From assembly GCA_022835595.1 (NCBI GenBank), contig BQUP01000001.1, positions 1,426,001 to 1,490,000 of the forward strand: 64,000 bases of DNA, read 5' to 3'. Source of the stretch: Cystobasidium ongulense (Eukaryota; Basidiomycota; Cystobasidiomycetes; Cystobasidiales; Cystobasidiaceae). Every line of letters begins with the position of its first letter. Position 1 is the stretch's first letter. Positions 8,550-45,345 of this stretch are shown one piece after another. The notes beneath the pieces were generated by a model. The model ran no database searches. It saw nothing but the letters and a program-made list of their open reading frames with translations, and was not told the DNA's origin. Both the position numbers and the translations under genes were made by a program.

Positions 8550-9010
8550 ATGGACCAAGACGTGGAGCCACGCACCTCTCTGCACTTGGGCAACATGCAG
8601 GACAACGCCCGCAGTCTCAACTATGTCCGAGCAAGTAGGGGAGCAATGACACGCCATCTTCTGCTTGTCAACTACTGACACCTCCCCCCAGGCATATCAA
8701 TCATCTCTGGCGCACTCGCGGGCGTCCTCGGACTCACCTCTTACAGCGGCTTCGCGTTCTACCTGCTCACCTCCGTCTTTGCCGGCCTCACAGTCAACCT
8801 GTGCAACGCTTCCTTGAAACCCGCCAGCTACTTTCGACACGGCTTTCTAGAGACGGCCTCCCAGGGTTTGACAGGCAATCTTATGGCATACCTTCTTTGT
8901 GAGTCGGCACCTTTTTCCGTGCACACGCCGGAAACTGATCTCTCCTGACCTTTTTCCCTACGGCAGTCTGGACGCTGTTGTACGGACTGGTCCATGTTTA
9001 CGAAGCATGA
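8550..9010 (+). CDS. EMC6: ER membrane protein complex subunit 6 (111 aa)
   Basis: Core membrane subunit of the EMC insertase, which places transmembrane segments into the ER membrane. Exons are 8550-8634, 8692-8898 and 8967-9010. The protein matches the EMC6/TMEM93 pattern: a soluble N-terminal ~28 residues (DNARSLNYVR), then SISIISGALAGVLGLTSYSG and FAFYLLTSVFAGL as hydrophobic segments, a short loop, and a last helix ending FWTLLYGLVHVYEA. Length and order of parts agree with the family. Both introns fall in phase 1. Confidence 0.93.
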
Positions 9011-9377: not shown

Positions 9378-10760
9378 TTACGGTGACGTATCGGTCGTAC
9401 TGCTAGCACAATATGGCTCACACTTGAATAGCTCCAAGGGGTCTCTCCAGTGCCTCCATCCATCTTTACCGCTATGATACCAAAAAGGTAAGGACACGAG
9501 GCTCGAGCGACAAGCAAGAGCAAGAGCAACTTACTTCTTGAAGTACTTTGGCCACTCCAACGCTGTCGATTGTATATGCCATAACTTTGGAAAACGTCAG
9601 TTTTTCCAGCAGCTTACCAATGTAGCGAAATTCTCTTACCTGGTTCTCCTTAGAAGCTTTACACGGCTCATACTTGAGCCGGAGCGGAGTTTGCGATGTT
9701 GGAGGCTCCTCCGTGTCGTCCGCAGTTATGCAGTAAGGCAAGTTCCCATTTTTGCGCGCGATCCGTCTGCAAAAGGCAGGTAGAGAGAATAATCGGCATC
9801 AAATCGAAACACAGCACTGGAATATACTCACAACTGACACCTTCTTCCGTAATACTGGGGTCTATGCCAAATGCCTGAGCCCTCGTGTTCTATGAGAAGT
9901 AGCAAAAGATTAGGTGCGTCCCTAGCACCTTAGGCCGGCCGAGTCGCTTGGTTCGAACTCACCATACCACCAGGATTTGCAGTGTACTCTTAACTGATTG
10001 GCAGGAGTAATACTCGTCACGTCATCCGTCCATTTCATCCTACGAAATCCATCTGACCCTCTGTTTTTAGCCGTGGTTGGCTGCCATCCCACGGTTGTGC
10101 CGACGGCGCCAAAGGATGTGGTGACTTGTATAGGCCACCCCCCATAATCATCGCCGTTCCCACTCTGATATTCAGTCGAGTCACTGCAGGAATTAGCGAA
10201 ATGTAAGTATCCGATTCAATAGGGCTAACACCGATTATTACCCACAAATCTATGAAAAACGTCGAGCTGTATCTTGTAGGATCGTCTTTGAGATTAGTTA
10301 GAGGCATAGTGGACAAGGTTCTTGTCTTGTCGTTCAGCGCCGTCTTCAGGGCTTTTTCGTCTTCGTCCCACGAAGGTGTGTCGCCCTACAGCCGGAGCCG
10401 ATGTGCGTGGTCAGCTGAGAATACACGATTATGCAGGGGCAAATGTCTATCTCTGCTTACCTTGGGAATACCAATCATTATTGGTGTTGCCTCGCTTCCG
10501 TCGCTTTCGGGATCGTCAATGCTGGAAGATAACAGAAAGCGAACGTATCCCCTTCCCCCATGCCTGTGCCATTCGAAGCCTCCTTTGAGTGAGGCACTGG
10601 TTATATCGCTCTGATCTTCCAAGAATTTCTCGATGTTGCGTGCCGAATGGCGCAGACGGTCATGATCCGAATCGAGTCGCCTTGGCTGTGCCTGTGGCTT
10701 GCTGGCTAGCAGAAGAGTAGCGGAAAGGAGAGAAAAGGCAACAGAGTGGATGCGAGTCAT
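9378..10760 (-). CDS. putative secreted cysteine-containing protein, copy A (329 aa)
   Basis: I do not recognise the family. Seven exons in transcript order: 10461-10760, 10246-10385, 9963-10183, 9832-9889, 9640-9766, 9535-9584 and 9378-9471, with intron phases 0, 2, 1, 2, 0, 2. The first ~25 residues form a signal peptide ending near SKPQAQ. There is no membrane anchor or recognised catalytic motif. Six Cys follow, at 215, 238, 252, 275, 316 and 320. Landmarks are CKSWWY, PQYYG, PYCI and an LWHIQ...EWPKYF segment. The next gene downstream of 10761 is a diverged paralogue with the same exon plan. An extracellular role, perhaps host interaction, is inference only. Confidence 0.82.
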
Positions 10761-11492
10761 GTTGAAGCACCTGTAGTCCGTATAGTGAAGCTTGTAGTGT
10801 GGTTTGGGAACGAGGGTAGGTACCGTATCTCCAGGCCTCGAATATCTGGCACTTACTCACAGAGCTTGTGCTTTAATCTGAGGTACTGAGACTAGACGGT
10901 CAATGGAATGCTTATTTGGGTAGTGAGTGTGAGGTCTTGTACTGTACTGCTAGGATGCTGGCACTCGATACTTTGAAATTTCTGATGTCTAATGTGAGCT
11001 AGAGCAGATACAAGCTTGTTCGAGATGAGGCAGGCTCACAAAACCTCACATTCAACGCAGAGGCTATGTACTAGGTGGAGGGAAAAGGAACAGGATCGGA
11101 TGCGCTCTTCAAAATGGATGTTTGCCGAAGGGTACATATCGCCACCTGTCGTTGGGAGGCTTTGTGAGCAAGGCGCAAGGCTCCAACAGATGTACATGGA
11201 CCAGTGGCTGTACTATATGGAGTAATACTATGCCACACCCACATTAGCAAAACTAGCTTCAGACGTTTGCTAATGATACTGGCGTCCTTGAACAGGACCC
11301 TTGATAGTTCAGCTCATTAGAGCTGGCGTCTCCGCTATCCTGGCTACATTTAGTAGCGAGTCAGAAAAAATAGAGTCTAAATTGGTATGCATGCGAAGAT
11401 GTATAGCATAACAAAACGTCTAATTCAATACATGGGGTATAACTCTGAAAGGAGGGGGAAAGGGGGAGGAACTTGTTGTACAGACTGGAGGC
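10761..11492. other. intergenic between secreted-protein copies A and B
   Basis: Should hold the promoter of copy A and the 3' end of copy B. A 69-codon frame on the plus strand (11016-11225) has no homology, signal peptide or intron support and I treat it as chance. Confidence 0.5.
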
Positions 11493-13060
11493 TCAAGCTG
11501 CCAGAGTAGGAGGCTGCTGGTGAAACTTGACGTCTCCTCGGTCGCATCCTTTCTGGGTGCAAGCCTTGAATAGGGATCGCGGATCTTGAGCGGGATCGAC
11601 AAGGAAAGAATCACTGTATCAAAGAGGAAAGGTGCAAAAACTTTGATCATAAGCTTTATGTGCATTGTGCATTGTTCACATGAATCACAACGTACGTCTG
11701 TCCGAGATAGTAATCTGGCCACTCTTGCGCAACCGACTGTAGGTGCCAAAGCTGCGCACCGGGTGAAATCGCTCAGCGGAAGGCCCATGGAAGTAAATGT
11801 TAATTGGCGCTCACTTGGAATTTGTTTTCTTCGGCGCAGGTAGAGAAAACAAGGTCCGCTCCACTCAACCCGTCCTTCACATCAATGAATTTTTTCAGGT
11901 CCTTGTTTTCGCTTCCTATGCAGATGTTTGGAGAGCTCTTGCCATCTCCAACTTTGCTGAAACGGTACTTTAGAGTCAGGGACTCCCCAAACCCTTCTAG
12001 ACGCAACGGATACTCACACTTGACAAGAGAGGCCATAATACTGAGGGGTAAGAGGGTGCACTTCTGATTCTGCGAGAAGAGTCAGCATGGCCCTGTCGCT
12101 GACTGCCGAAAGCAAGACCTCCGTGACTACCACAATGAACGGACTGTCCATCAAGTCAGAGCTGCAGACAATCGGTGTCGTTCAACTGAACAAAACTGAG
12201 AGGCCTGCACTGCAGCTGTGATTTCGTCGCGAGCTATTGCTGCATACCTATACGAGGTAGCAGAAAGTCTTGCTTCCGGAAAAAGACCGAGTACTTACGA
12301 TACCACCATTTTTCGCAACTGATTTCAAACTGAAAGTCAGGCCTACTTATATCGAAATCTTGAATTTGGGCAAATTCGGGTGTGTACTTTGGGGAGGGAA
12401 GAGGGGAAGTAGGTGGGGAAGTGGCGAGCTCGGGTACTTTAAACTTCCATGGCAGTGCATTTGGTCCAATGCGAGTAATGGCAATGCGCGTCTGCGTTCG
12501 GCCACCATTGTCGACCTGGAACCCAGCTGGCATATCAGTTCTGAAAAAGGAGCCGCCGGCGTTAATAATTGATGTAAAAATTGTCTGGCGGTCTGAAAAC
12601 ACACCTGTTCGCGATAAATGTCTGACAGTCTCTGCTGTAGACGATAACATCAAACGTCAGCACGATGTCGCTGCTTTGCTATAAGTGGATTGGGGTACAG
12701 ACGCGTGGGAAGCTGTTCCGCTCAAGCGGTTGGTTTTGGGGGAATGCTTATTGGACACGGTAGCGTCCTTATCCTTGTATTTCTCGCACTGCAAATAAGG
12801 CCTCGAGGCGGTATTCAGAGTATGCCCACATATCCTGCATCTCTGAAACTTACGTCCGGTAGATCTATAACCACTGGTGTAGAGTCCTGGTCGTCCTTGA
12901 CACTTGCTGCCAGTACAAACCGGAAGTAATTCTTCCCAGGATGTCGGTCGAAATCAAAGGTCACCTTCTTGGGGGAACTGGTTGCTTCAACCATGATGAA
13001 CAAAATCGAACATAATAGCACGGCGAGGGGTACAAGCCTTGATGCACAGCCTCGAGCCAT
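11493..13060 (-). CDS. putative secreted cysteine-containing protein, copy B (297 aa)
   Basis: Paralogue of copy A. Exons in transcript order: 12854-13060, 12605-12678, 12299-12540, 12018-12069, 11815-11956, 11696-11751 and 11493-11613. All six intron phases (0, 2, 1, 2, 0, 2) equal those of copy A. A signal peptide covers roughly residues 1-27. Shared landmarks are NYFRFVLAAS (copy A GYVRFLLSSS), CEKWWY, PQYYGLSCQ, NICI, LWHLQ...EWPDYY and DPRSLFKAC. Six Cys match copy A in order (169, 190, 204, 232, 276, 281). Introns 1 and 3 are long (about 175 and 229 nt), and the acceptor of intron 1 is the least certain junction. Function unknown. Confidence 0.78.
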
Positions 13061-13634: not shown

Positions 13635-15221
13635 TCATGCACTTAATTCCACGACGAAAGCCGTTGCTAGTTGAACGAATTGAGCCATATGATCAAAGGA
13701 GAAACCCTCGACTTGAATCGTATCGCCGCTTGTGTGAATATGTCGCGTATTAGAATCTTCGAAAGTCGCCTCTGCAGAAGTACATAGCCACAGTAAAGAG
13801 AGGTATCCCGTTAGCCATGCCAAAGTTGGTATATCCATATCCTCTTTGAAAGAAAGTGTGCACGCCAAGCTTACCTATAGCAAAAGCGCTTGGAACTCCG
13901 ATCTTGGTCCAGCTCGAATGATCGGAGCAAGCATATTTGCATTCAGTTTGTACGCTCGGAATATCGTTATATTCGTCTATCAAACGGTGTACGTATTCCG
14001 TTAGAGAGGGAGATACGAAATCTTGAATTATGCCGATTCGCTCCTTTGTGCCCGGTTTGACATAGGCAGTCATGTCCATCTAATTCAGAGTTACGATGGT
14101 CGACAATGCGTGAGTATCAGCATTTTGTTACCATCGCGCAAAAGGTATGCAATCCATTCCTGAACTCACCTGAAGCATGGCTTTGACCCGCTCTCCTCGA
14201 TGCGCCTGGCTGATCTTCTTTTGATAGTCATTGACAATAGCTTGAGAACCAAGCATGCCGCCTTCTTCAGCAGAGTAGAAGTGAAACTCGACATTGTGGC
14301 TTTGTGGAACATAGCTTGCTTGGGTCAGTATGTGCAACATCTCCATGACGGTCGTAGTGCCCGAGCCGTCGTCATCCGCTCCACTACAATTTGAGCACAT
14401 TAGCTTCGATATATATTATGAAATGTGTACAGAGACGGATAAGACGCTTACGGCGCAGAGAGAAACGGCAGCAAGTTAGTGGAATCTTGATGGGCTCCGA
14501 CTACAATTGTACCCTTTGCATTTGCAGTGTCATTGGCAGGAAGCTTGACGATGAGCGAGTTCTGGCCCCATGGATGAGGGAATTCCTCGACTGACATTCT
14601 CAAGTGCTTGTTCTTCTTCTCCGAGACGATTTGTTGTAGCTTGTCTAGCAGGAATAGCTGTGATTGACGCCCATCGTTGCTCCTGTAGTATCTGGTTCGG
14701 AACGAGCTGAATGCTTGAAGGAAGCTTTTCATTCTTGAGGTATCAATGTTGTTATAGAACCTCTTGTCAAGTTGATGACGGCCATACGTCCAGTTACTTG
14801 GAAATGCGGCGCCATCGTATCCCTTGTTGACCTCAAAGTGAGATGCGGATGGCTCATTCTCGAGCAATGCGCTCTCGGTGATATCGATGAACTTGATACC
14901 GTGGAAAGTAAGTAAAGCCTTCTGACCTTCTGTAATGAAATGTCTGTCCTCGGCGTGCTCGGAGAGAGCTACAAGTCTACGCTCGGGCAAGGAGTCGACA
15001 TGCTCGACCAGGCGGGCATAGTCGAGTGATCCGAGCAGAGGCTGGAAGGACTCTAGAGACGGTAGATGAGCATAGAAAGAGGTGACAGCTGCGGGCTGCT
15101 GTGCTGACTGTCCTGCTAGGAACGGCTGCTGGTGATGGTCGAAGCTGTTGGCGAGTGGTGATGCGAGGGCAGAGGCCGCGACGAGCAGGGCTGCGAGCGA
15201 AGCCGAGGCTTGGATGTGCAT
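13635..15221 (-). CDS. secreted M28 zinc aminopeptidase (441 aa)
   Basis: Leucine-aminopeptidase-like enzyme of family M28A, expected to remove N-terminal residues from peptides outside the cell. Exons in transcript order: 14452-15221, 14170-14383, 13875-14079 and 13635-13771. The start at 15221 gives a clean signal peptide (about residues 1-20); open sequence upstream lacks this. A propeptide precedes the catalytic domain. Metal and active-site motifs appear in order: GAHQDS (H244), GADDDGSG (260-262), SAEEGG (E296/E297), MDMTAY (D330) and SDHSSW (D381/H382), with a final HIHT near the C-terminus. N-glycosylation sequons are present. The window shows it next to, but not clearly co-regulated with, the secreted pair. 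Confidence 0.93.
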
Positions 15222-15509
15222 GCTGTAGGGGTGTATGTGTTTGTCTGCGGCGAGAGATGCGCTTTGCCGCCGTGCGCTCGCTTGATGGGTGAGAAGAAGG
15301 CGAACGAGCGAGCTGCGCTGGACCTCGGCGCATCTCTCGCATCTCTCGACCACGACGACCACCGAATTGATGCCATCATGGTGAGTTCTGCCAGCCTCTA
15401 CGACGAGACTCGCATAGTCCATCAGCTGAACTGACCGACTCCTGCCTTTCATCCACGCGCCTGGACATTATATCGTCGACCGCATCCTTCTCACGCGACC
15501 TGGACATGC
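15222..15509. promoter_or_regulatory. divergent promoter, aminopeptidase / RET3
   Basis: The 288 bases between the two start codons. An ATG at 15378 is followed directly by GTGAGT; splicing from there to 15525 would give an alternative N-terminus for zeta-COP, so part of this stretch may be transcribed. Confidence 0.45.
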
Positions 15510-33131: not shown

Positions 33132-34496
33132 TCAATAGACCACTTCTATTCTCCTGCTCGAGCAAATACCCTTCAGATGCTTCAGGCTTATTTCCCATGC
33201 CGATGTGCCCGAGTCGTCGTCCAGATCGTCGACACAGTCCCGCATCTGAAAACTCTTAAAGTCCAATTGCTCAAGTTTGGGTAGATTGCTCTTGTCCGTA
33301 AGAATGTCCCCCCAAACCTCGAGAAGCAGATGGTCGATGACAACGTCAGCTTCCATACTGTCGACTAGCACCACTCTCGTCAATGAGGGTATGTGTTCTA
33401 GATCCTGTATAATATCGCACCAGTGCGAAGGATCGTGACGAATCCAGATGACCAGAGACTCGAGGTTGTGGAACTGTCCCATCGTACTAAGCTGAAAGTC
33501 CCCCTCCAGGAGACAGTGATACTGCAAGCCCTTGATGTCTAGATGTCGCAATCTATTTCCATGGCGCTGGAAGCTGGAAGAGCATCGTGTAGAGCGCGCG
33601 CGCAGCTTCAAATACTTCATCGTCATCTACCCCAACGTAGGTATATGCTTCGCATCCTTCGCAATGTAAGAGGGACAAGTGCTGCAATCCGGGGGTGTCT
33701 GCTATATGCGATGGCTCTAGGAGCGCCAGGGCTTTGACGGGTAGTCCTGCAAGTGCGATAGTCGCTTGCTGCGAGTGTACGGCGACTCTGTAAATCAACT
33801 GTCCAAAGGCAGACGTAACTTCCTGGTTGTCTGAATTCCAATCGGCACAAATTACAAGTCGTTGCAAGTGGCTGACTTGAATATTGTCGACAAGGAGGGC
33901 CGGCGGTTGCTGTAGGTATAGAAGTAGTTCTTGCGGGTGACAGTGACTATCTATTGCAGCTATGTCAATCTTCTGTGATGTCGAAATGGTAAAGGTCCCA
34001 CAATGGCCAGAAGCTGAACCGAGTATGAGACGCTTGACCGCCTTGGCTTTGCTAGACGACGTGCATAATGTATAAATCGACATCTCGTCAGACTTTGACG
34101 GCTTGCTGTTGATCTCCACGTCTCTATATAGTCGTCGTACTACGATGGGTGAGAGATACTTGGAAAGGCATAGCATGTCTGTCGTACGACGAGAAAACAA
34201 CGTTCAGCGTGACGTGCCCTCACGGTACTGCAAGACACGATAACCATGCACATACGATAGAGGTAGCCTGCAAATTGGCCAGTGACGGCCTTCTCGTCCT
34301 CCAATGCAAAATCGAGGATGTATGCTTGGAGTTCGTGGGGTAGCACGAGTGGTCCACGGCTTGCAATCACGCCTGCCGGCTCCTTCGGTCTAGACATATC
34401 TGGCGGAGAACTGGAGGCAGATCTATTGATAAAGTCTTGAGGGCTGGTAGTGTTCGCGTGATGGTTGGGCTGGATGAACGAAGCCTTAAGTGCCAC
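33132..34496 (-). pseudogene. F-box/LRR-like gene, copy 1, frame broken by a 7-bp duplication
   Basis: Resembles the large fungal family of F-box-like proteins with leucine-rich C-termini; substrate unknown. Exon 1 is 34256-34496 and exon 2 begins at 34178. The joined sequence reads LVLPHELQAYILDFALEDE, then LCLSKYLSPIVVRRLYRDVEI, an F-box-like opening, followed by irregular LRR-like sequence (VSHLQRLVICADW, HLSLLHCEGCE, RLRHLDIKGLQYH, NLESLVIWIR). Near 33567-33580 the seven bases CTGGAAG (plus strand) occur twice in tandem, which throws exon 2 out of frame between TMLFQ and RHGNRLRHLDIKG. The neighbouring paralogue at 34776-35465 reads through the same place without the duplication. It may be a pseudogene, a shortened protein or a sequence error. 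Confidence 0.7.
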
Positions 34497-34775: not shown

Positions 34776-35465
34776 TTACATTACTAAAGCTACCTTCCGC
34801 CTGGCGCAAACACCTTTCAACCGATTCAGACATACTTGCCAATCCATTATCTCCCTATCTGTCCCTTCGTCCTTGTCCATGCATCCGATATGCTCCGGCA
34901 TACTGAAGCTTGTGAGGTCCACTTGCTCAACTTTCAGCAAATTGTTCTTGTCTGAAAGAATGTCTGAGCACATTTGGAGCGCCAAAGGTGGAATGAAATC
35001 TTCGGAGTCCTCAGTGTCTTCTAAAACCAATCTTTTCAAGCCAGAAACGGTTATTAGATCCCATACATCGTTATACCAAGAGGACTGATGACTGGGACGA
35101 ATCCAGATGGCAAGCGACTCGAGATTTTGGAACTTCCCAATTTTGGTGAGCTGGAACTTTCCTCCCAGTAGATAGTGGTACTGCAATCCCCTGATATCTA
35201 GATGTCGCAGTCTGTGGCCATGTCGCTGGAGACACATGGCGTAGACCGCCCTAGCAACTAAGAAATCATCGTCCCGGTCGCGTCTGTTGTAGTCTTCGCA
35301 CCGCTCGCAATGTATAAACGTCAAGTGCGCCAGACGACGTGTATCTGCTATAAGCGCTGGGTCTAAGAGAGCCGGAGCTTGCACTGCTGCTCCTGCAAGA
35401 GATATAATAGCTTGAGGCGATTCTATAGCCACCTTCCGGAGCAGGTCTCCGAAGGCAGACATCAT
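34776..35465 (-). CDS. F-box/LRR-like paralogue, copy 2, 5'-truncated (229 aa)
   Basis: Paralogue of the gene at 33132-34496, sharing SAFGxL, ALIADT (SHIADT), FIHCERCEDYN (LLHCEGCEAYT), RHGHRLRHLDIRGLQYHYLL and NLESLAIWIR. Homology continues upstream of the first ATG (VSHLQRLVLCARW, to about 35505), but the F-box region of copy 1 is absent and an in-frame stop lies near 35632. The copy is therefore missing its 5' half. The remaining reading frame is intact to the stop at 34776. Whether it is expressed is unknown; a remnant of unequal tandem duplication is the simplest view. Confidence 0.65.
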   Translation of the reverse strand: MMSAFGDLLRKVAIESPQAIISLAGAAVQAPALLDPALIADTRRLAHLTFIHCERCEDYNRRDRDDDFLVARAVYAMCLQRHGHRLRHLDIRGLQYHYLLGGKFQLTKIGKFQNLESLAIWIRPSHQSSWYNDVWDLITVSGLKRLVLEDTEDSEDFIPPLALQMCSDILSDKNNLLKVEQVDLTSFSMPEHIGCMDKDEGTDREIMDWQVCLNRLKGVCARRKVALVM

Positions 35466-35744
35466 TTCCAGGTCTTCCTGACACCAACGGGCACAAAGGA
35501 CTAGGCGCTGAAGGTGACTGACTGGGCTGGCCTCTTTCTCGCTTGCAGTAATTTGTGGTGTATGATTTAAAGTATTCCTTATTGATGCAGCATTGGGAGT
35601 GGCTAGCTGAAGCTTCTTGCGAATGTGCTATAGCCTGTGATATGTGGACTGTTCGCATTGCAAGCAAGCAGCTTGCGGCGATATGAGCGGCAGGGAATGC
35701 GACGACCTCGAGCTCGAGTACATCGCACAGGACCTGTCGGCTCT

Positions 35745-43453: not shown

Positions 43454-45345
43454 TCACTTCTTACCGCGGCCTCTTCCCCTCATACTGAACTTGGGCTTGC
43501 CTCTCGTAGCGGCGGGTGGTTTACTACTAGAGTTGCTAAACCTTGCCTTTTTAGATGCTGGCACTGGAGCTTCTTCCTCTGACAAATCATCATCGTCGTC
43601 TCCGCTATCATAAGGTATAGGAGACATATCTGAATCTTCCTCTTCATCGAAATCTTTTTCCCCCTCTTCACCTTCTGAAGCTTCATCGAATAGTTCCTCT
43701 TCATCTTCACCTTCTGATGCCTGTACGTCCTCTTTCGCTTTTTCAACAGCTTCATCTCCATACATATCTTCATATTCAAAACCGTCTGATTCTTCCTCTT
43801 CTTCCTCCTCTTCTTCTTCTGCGTCGCCTTCAGCATTTCCATCAGCCTTCTTCTTATCAGCCTTCTTCTTTTGTTTCTCAGCTTTCAAGCGTTCCTTTTC
43901 TTCCTTCTTGCGCTTAACATTCGCCTCCTGTTCGGCTCTTCTTGCTTTAGCGAGCTTTTCGCGCTCCTTTGCTCTCTTTGCAATAATAGACGCTTCTTTA
44001 GCCGTTTTGTGAATGAACTCATGGAAGAGAACGTCTCCTTTTCCATCTCCAACACCATCTTCAATCTTTACCAGACCGAGCTCCATGCGTGGACCAAGTT
44101 CGGTCAACTTCACAGCTCGTTTTTCCGTTCCATCTGCGAATATTTTGCGATTCGCTCTGCCCATGTACGAGCCTGGTAATGCGACTTGTTTGCTATTCTC
44201 ACCGGTAACAGCATCTTCTTCACCACCGGAAGCCTCGGATTCACCTTCACTCGCTGATGATAAGAAACCCATGTCTCCGTGACTCAATACATAATCACTG
44301 ATATCTTGAGCATTGCGTAGATCTGGCATGCCTTTCGCTCGGAGTGCTGCGTAAGATCCGGCCACTGAACCAGATGCGTCACTCGTTGCAGCTGCAGAGT
44401 ATACACTGCCTTCACGGGTACCGCGTCCACCTCTCTTTGCTGTTGTACCTTCGATAATCTTGCGCACTGATCTTGACACGCCAACCGGACGAACTGAGAT
44501 TAAATAATGCCTAAAGTCGATAGTACGTGTTGTTGCATTGTATGAGAGGAGAACGACTCTGCGAGCAGAGGAGAGGGGCATGGAGTGAACACGGATGGGA
44601 GGGAAGAGATTTTGGAACATGGTTTGCATGAGGGTCAACTGGCGGGCATCTGTTGGGTTTCCGGCAGCGGAGAAGTTGTTGAGGATGAGCTGCAGGCGAG
44701 AACATGTCAGTGATGGAAATGCGTTGTAACTAGTGTACCGTTGGCTTTCAGTGCACCTACCATAGGTTCAGTGGCAAACTCTTTGCCCGGACTTCTTGGA
44801 CGCTTGGTAGCAGCCAGGATGTCACGAGTCAGAGCATATCGCAGCACCTTGAAGCTGAGCATAGGACCACGCGGTAGTCTGGTTATGCGAAGGTTGACGT
44901 TCGAGGTAGCTTCATCCTTTTCATCTTCATCTGCATTCTTGTTCGCGGTAGACTGAGCCAGGATCATGAGATGTGTGACATGGAGCGGGCCGCTCATGGC
45001 GATGAAGTCCTTGATCTTGTTGCTCCTTCGCTCCTATGCACGCGAATGATAGTTGTTCGAGATCAGCTTTTTCCGTTGCAGTTATCGACGTGATCGAAGG
45101 CTTTTCGACCTACCCTCAGTCTGGCAGCTGTATTAGGCTCCATGACCTGTCTGAGGTCGCGAGAGAGCGCCTTGACGCTGCTTCCTACTTCTCCAGCATG
45201 CAGGACGAATGACTTGGGCTTGCCATCACCGGTCGCCTTTGCGGTGTCTGCTTTCTGTGTGCGTTTTTTGCCCTGCAGAGTATGCGAGATTTCAGCATGG
45301 AATCAAGAGAACCAAGCGGAGCACCCCACTCACGCCGCGTGCCAT
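43454..45345 (-). CDS. SSF1: Brix-domain ribosome biogenesis protein SSF1/PPAN (559 aa)
   Basis: Nucleolar factor needed for 27S pre-rRNA processing and 60S subunit assembly. Exons in transcript order: 45334-45345 (MARG), 45114-45272, 44761-45033 and 43454-44689. Landmarks: KPKSFVLHAGEVGSSVKALSRDLR, SNKIKDFIAMSGPLHVTHLM, LPRGPMLSFKVLRYALTRDI, NLFPPIRVHSM and TIDFRHYLISVRPVGVSRSVRKI, the Brix domain; then a long Lys/Glu-rich coiled coil (about residues 385-450) and an acidic tail ending in an Arg-Gly-rich RGRGRGKK. The order of parts agrees with Peter Pan/Ssf1. Confidence 0.94.

What the first reader, a model, noticed from the sequence alone, without database searches (positions are those of the whole stretch)
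9378..13060. Tandem pair of unrecognised secreted, six-cysteine proteins with identical seven-exon plan
Seen in sequence: two adjacent minus-strand genes, each with a signal peptide, share six intron phases in the same order (0,2,1,2,0,2). Aligned landmarks are GYVRFLLSSS/NYFRFVLAAS, CKSWWY/CEKWWY, PQYYG, a Cys-Ile, LWHIQ/LWHLQ, EWPKYF/EWPDYY and DPxxLFK. Six Cys match in order with spacings 23-14-23-41-4 (A) and 21-14-28-44-5 (B). The proteins have diverged strongly outside these points. I recognise no domain. Inference: a lineage-specific, fast-evolving secreted family, possibly effectors. This is my best candidate for an undescribed system.
Basis: partly seen in the sequence, partly recalled or inferred. 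Interest (0 to 1): 0.82.

Follow-up and report, generated by a model that had tools for sequence, protein, structure and literature searches.

The report
Old tandem pair of secreted orphan proteins
Two neighbouring genes in a little-known fungus encode related, probably exported proteins that match no described family; such orphan secreted pairs are common in fungi, so this one is real but fairly ordinary.

Summary
Minus-strand genes A (10760-9378) and B (13060-11493) encode homologous proteins of 329 and 297 aa: alignment score 212 against a maximum of 71 in 1000 shuffles. All 12 introns are GT-AG, phases 0,2,1,2,0,2 in both; four of six positions share alignment column and phase. Exon 2 of B is uncertain. 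No credible relative appeared in Pfam, NCBIfam, PDB or 5.8 billion proteins. Searches of the 19.8-Mb genome found only these two. One gene tree puts the host in an unnamed Pucciniomycotina clade. 'Fast-evolving' and 'effector' are not supported: synonymous sites are saturated, so the duplication is old; A exceeds 300 aa with 1.8% Cys; the flanks include housekeeping genes. My reading: old, lineage-restricted, extracellular paralogues; secretion and role are inferred. The kind is known: in Microbotryum 46 of 71 small secreted proteins lacked database matches (PMC4469406, passages).

The parts
9378..10760 (-). Gene A, 7 exons (10760-10461, 10385-10246, 10183-9963, 9889-9832, 9766-9640, 9584-9535, 9471-9378), 329 aa
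   Evidence: GT-AG at 6 of 6 introns, phases 0,2,1,2,0,2
11493..13060 (-).
   Evidence: exons 1 and 3-7 supported by homology to A, exon 2 uncertain
12605..12853 (-).
10683..10760 (-). Probable signal peptide of A (about residues 1-26)
   Evidence: hydropathy peak; end point judged by eye
12983..13060 (-). Probable signal peptide of B (about residues 1-26)
   Evidence: hydropathy peak; end point judged by eye
9963..10183 (-). A exon 3, ends in the CKSWWY landmark, phase 1 intron after it
12299..12540 (-). B exon 3, ends in the CEKWWY landmark, phase 1 intron after it
9535..9584 (-). A exon 6, LWHIQ...EWPKYF; the only direct DNA repeat with B that one search listed (9542-9586 with 11709-11753, 71% over 45 nt)
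11696..11751 (-). B exon 6, LWHLQ...EWPDYY

Best explanation
A and B are two intact paralogous genes made by an old tandem duplication in a Pucciniomycotina fungus. Each makes a protein that enters the secretory pathway through an N-terminal signal peptide (inferred from hydropathy). Each probably folds into a compact extracellular domain, stabilised by up to three disulphides, around the conserved WWY, PQYYG, LWHxQ and EWPxY(F/Y) aromatic core (inferred). Most likely they act outside the cell as non-enzymatic binding or wall-surface proteins, the two copies having diverged in what they bind (inferred). Shown: two homologous genes, a shared intron plan, four Cys conserved by column and two more in order, age of the duplication, no detectable relatives.
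For: Homology and shared intron plan. Saturated synonymous sites with fewer non-synonymous differences (pS 0.80, pN 0.51 over 268 codons; 0.84 and 0.39 in 111 codons of blocks that I chose by eye), which fits constraint on the proteins. No match in Pfam or NCBIfam, nothing credible in the PDB, none in the protein collection, while a control query from the same window found 366 relatives there, with named Pucciniomycotina among the 120 listed. Two copies found in the genome.
Against: No structure, expression or localisation data. Codon bias is weak, and the proposed frame scores best in only 6 of 14 exons. The last two Cys do not align by column. Conserved His (A H67, H285) and acidic residues (D83, E223, E292, D309, two sequences only) leave room for a catalytic role. 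Exon 2 of B is uncertain.
Confidence: 0.5

Rival explanations
1. Secreted effectors that act on a plant, lichen or fungal partner and diverge under selection from it.
For: Secreted look, orphan status, tandem duplication; in Microbotryum a linked pair of Cys-rich small secreted proteins without Pfam domains is induced during infection (PMC4469406, passages).
Against: Synonymous saturation, so no sign of accelerated change; A longer than 300 aa, Cys content low to borderline; housekeeping genes among the flanks; no expansion found in the genome. Lifestyle of the host unknown.
Confidence: 0.2
2. Secreted enzymes of a known fold that has drifted beyond sequence recognition.
For: About 300 aa, conserved His, Glu, Asp and Trp residues; a secreted-looking M28 aminopeptidase next door.
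Against: No Pfam match for A at E up to 10 or for B at E up to 1, no NCBIfam match for either at E up to 10; the best PDB match of the two-sequence profile is E 0.014 to atlastin-3, partial and implausible.
Confidence: 0.2
3. One or both gene models are wrong in part, or a gene is decayed.
For: Weak codon bias, proposed frame best in 6 of 14 exons.
Against: No stop within 329 and 297 codons; 12 of 12 GT-AG introns; homology in exons 1 and 3-7; pN lower than pS.
Confidence: 0.07

Closest known systems
Tandem, domain-less cysteine-rich secreted families of Microbotryum lychnidis-dioicae, such as the MVLG_04105 family (PMC4469406, passages seen)
   Same: Secreted look, tandem neighbours, no Pfam domain; same subphylum by the tree.
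   Different: Those are small secreted proteins (under 250 aa), four members, three adjacent on the mating-type chromosome, two reported as induced during infection. A and B are about 300 aa, two copies, with housekeeping genes around. No direct comparison with MVLG_04105 was made; only the general searches bear on it.
Fungal small secreted proteins in the sense of Kim et al. 2016 (PMC4759460, passages seen)
   Same: Not assigned to an enzyme family, no database relatives found.

Membership tests
Effector-like small secreted proteins (criteria in PMC4759460) | 300 aa or shorter | tested here: not met
Effector-like small secreted proteins (criteria in PMC4759460) | Cys at least 3% of residues | tested here: not met
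   A 1.8%, not met; B 3.03% whole, just met, 2.6% without the first 26 residues, not met
Effector-like small secreted proteins (criteria in PMC4759460) | Found in one species only | tested here: inconclusive
Effector-like small secreted proteins (criteria in PMC4759460) | Signal peptide, no further membrane helix | tested here: inconclusive
   Hydropathy only: N-terminal peaks 2.14 (A) and 3.20 (B); elsewhere at most 1.00 (A) and 1.99 (B, in the doubtful exon 2)
Effector-like small secreted proteins (criteria in PMC4759460) | Expression during association with a host | not testable with these tools
   no transcript data
Any Pfam or NCBIfam family | Profile match at the curated cut-off | tested here: not met
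   0 families for A, B, B rival model in Pfam; 0 for A and B in NCBIfam
Tandem paralogue pair | Adjacent, same strand, homologous, shared intron plan | tested here: met

The most novel reading that the evidence does not exclude
A and B found a secreted protein family with a fold of its own, restricted to a barely named environmental clade of Pucciniomycotina, where the two copies were kept side by side since before the clade's radiation because they work together outside the cell, for instance as two halves of one surface complex.
Probability: 0.12. Interest if true: 0.5.

Novelty: new member of a known kind. Interest (0 to 1): 0.22.

Why it matters
The family matched nothing in the libraries searched, and its host clade has no named relative above 52% identity among the 120 hits listed for a conserved protein. 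Its orthologues could show how orphan secreted proteins arise and persist. By itself it changes no general picture, because orphan secreted tandem genes are frequent in fungi.

Tried and rejected
More members in the genome. Protein searches with A and B, E up to 10, found only each other. The LWHxQ...EWP pattern gave 21 hits at up to 3 mismatches against 10 with the reversed pattern: A and B with none, the other 19 all with 3. That is above the control, but tblastn of A and B on all 19 loci gave nothing credible. The PQYYGxxC pattern gave 62 hits at up to 2 mismatches (59 reversed): A and B with none, one with 1; the DNA of 30 of the 62 was fetched and checked, 32 were not. CxxWWY plus splice donor gave 42 hits at up to 2 mismatches (47 reversed): A and B with none, seven with 1; none of these loci was cut out, so they were not checked. 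One search covered 62 loci and the window; rows from loci holding A or B themselves, window rows below E 1e-6 and rows at E 8 or above were dropped from its print. A first pattern was off by one base, so its 2 hits mean nothing. Very diverged members could be missed.

Other collections. A 'relative' in a Steroidobacteraceae MAG (L071; 1 of 52 stretches, E 5e-6) was rejected: the match runs through stop codons, by eye in the wrong frame of a bacterial repeat protein. Viral contigs: none of 90 stretches. Plasmids: none for A (B was not run, phages were not searched). PDB matches are weak, partial and implausible.

The first codon-usage table was trained partly on out-of-frame pieces and is discarded. 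Three paper searches did not name the host; one search found nothing. Passages of PMC9023891 were seen and not used.

Structure prediction was not run: its stated rule accepts only proteins that the DNA gives letter for letter, without skipped codons. A and B exist only after splicing, so I did not send them.

Full report
What is in the sequence. Two minus-strand genes lie head to tail: A from 10760 to 9378 and B from 13060 to 11493. Rebuilding them exon by exon gives proteins of 329 and 297 aa, GT-AG at 12 of 12 introns and the phases 0,2,1,2,0,2 in both.

More than chance. The local alignment score of A with B, the first 26 residues left out, is 212. In 1000 shuffles of B the mean is 34 and the maximum 71. 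78 of 268 aligned residues are identical. Introns 1, 3, 4 and 5 fall in the same alignment column and phase; introns 2 and 6 share phase but lie two columns apart. As DNA, the one direct repeat of 18 nt or more that one search listed is a 45-nt stretch of exon 6, 71% alike.

Weak points. Exon 2 of B is not settled. Enumeration gave 26 rows in identical pairs, that is 13 models within my cut-offs, 25 rows being shown; three further hand-built models also keep the frame. Codon bias favours the proposed frames only slightly over the whole genes, and exon by exon in just 2 of 7 for A and 4 of 7 for B (the table was mistrained and is dropped). Of the six Cys, the first four align by column; MAFFT pairs the sixth of A with the fifth of B, so the last two match in order only. 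B has a seventh Cys after its first 26 residues, in the doubtful exon.

No known relatives. Pfam: none for A at E up to 10, B at E up to 1, B rival model at E up to 1. NCBIfam: none for either at E up to 10. PDB: A three matches at E 0.98 or worse, B none, the two-sequence profile six at E 0.014 or worse, the best a partial match to atlastin-3; I take these as chance. In the collection of 5.8 billion proteins, 1713 candidates for A and 734 for B shared words and none reached E 10. As a control, a Brix-domain (SSF1-type) protein of the same window found 366 proteins at E up to 0.001; the best 120 are listed and include named Microbotryomycetes, rusts, Mixia and Ustilaginomycotina. So fungal proteins are present, and the blank means something for named, annotated fungi, within the limit that relatives must share short exact words. 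It says little for the closest relatives of the host: the top 19 hits of the control, 54-95% identical, are unnamed sequences (source tags lgn and ena). The control piece was one long open frame; genes with seven short exons may not be predicted whole in such contigs (inference).

Copies in the genome. The window lies in a genome of 19.77 Mb in 19 contigs. Protein searches find A and B only. Pattern searches find A and B as the only perfect hits. Imperfect hits equal the reversed-pattern background (62 against 59, 42 against 47) and exceed it (21 against 10), but the 19 imperfect ones were checked by tblastn without a credible match. 32 of the 62 hits and the imperfect hits were not checked further. 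Outside, an apparent bacterial relative is a match through stop codons; viral contigs and, for A, plasmids are blank.

The host. A tree of 44 proteins that I selected places the window's Brix protein in a group (support 100/99) of 12 sequences, the other 11 all unnamed. That group lies inside a Pucciniomycotina cluster with Microbotryomycetes, rusts and Mixia, supported at 94/94, just under the tool's mark, with its inner order unresolved. It is one gene, with long branches for Mixia and the outgroup. Cystobasidiomycetes or a neighbouring class is my guess; no call shows it. The lifestyle is unknown.

Surroundings. Below A, on the plus strand, lies an EMC6 gene (8679-8945, E 3e-13). Above B is an M28 aminopeptidase on the minus strand (E 2e-28), then a clathrin-adaptor/coatomer small subunit on the plus strand (E 1e-16). 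GC of 4-kb steps stays between 0.48 and 0.54. I saw nothing that marks an effector island; transposons were not searched for.

Age and selection. Over 268 aligned codons pS is 0.80 and pN 0.51; in 111 codons of conserved blocks that I chose by eye, 0.84 and 0.39. Of 72 identical residues with more than one codon, 32 use the same codon, against 26.8 expected at random. Synonymous sites are therefore saturated and the duplication is old. The lower pN fits constraint, but with pS saturated no ratio can be given.

How it probably works. The best reading is a pair of secreted, disulphide-bearing, lineage-restricted extracellular proteins with a common aromatic core, acting as binding or surface proteins whose specificities have parted since the duplication. 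Homology, intron plan, Cys order and age are shown. Secretion, disulphides and role are inferred. The effector reading is possible but has no positive support here, and A misses two of the usual criteria (length, Cys content; PMC4759460, passages). A drifted enzyme cannot be excluded, since several His, Glu and Asp are shared by the two proteins.

Novelty. The family matched nothing in the libraries searched. The kind is well known: in Microbotryum lychnidis-dioicae 46 of 71 small secreted proteins were species-specific and had no match in the NCBI protein database, and tandem Cys-rich families without Pfam domains are reported (PMC4469406, passages). Three literature searches (5 papers, 52 papers of which 15 were listed, and none) brought no description of this family in what was listed; they were general and prove little. 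Verdict: real, undescribed as far as searched, ordinary in kind.

Noticed in passing
window 33135-34203 and 34779-35627, minus strand: A second tandem pair: two proteins alike in stretches such as RLRHLDI(K/R)GLQYH and NLESL(V/A)IWIR (read by eye). The two pieces tested, 33556-34203 and 34779-35627, had no Pfam match at E up to 1.
   Followed up: no
window about 13750-15230, minus strand: Secreted-looking M28 aminopeptidase gene directly upstream of B (Pfam PF04389, E 1.8e-28); whether it is co-regulated with A and B is unknown.
   Followed up: partly
window 43457-44767, minus strand: The Brix-domain protein has 19 top hits (P0001-P0019), all unnamed and 54-95% identical, while the named ones listed reach at most 52%; the host clade seems present in many environmental samples and nearly unnamed.
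   Followed up: partly
L071 5001-5126: the search for related loci reported a bacterial relative (E 5e-6) whose match contains stop codons, by eye in the wrong frame of a repeat protein; a caution about E-values computed on few candidates.
   Followed up: yes
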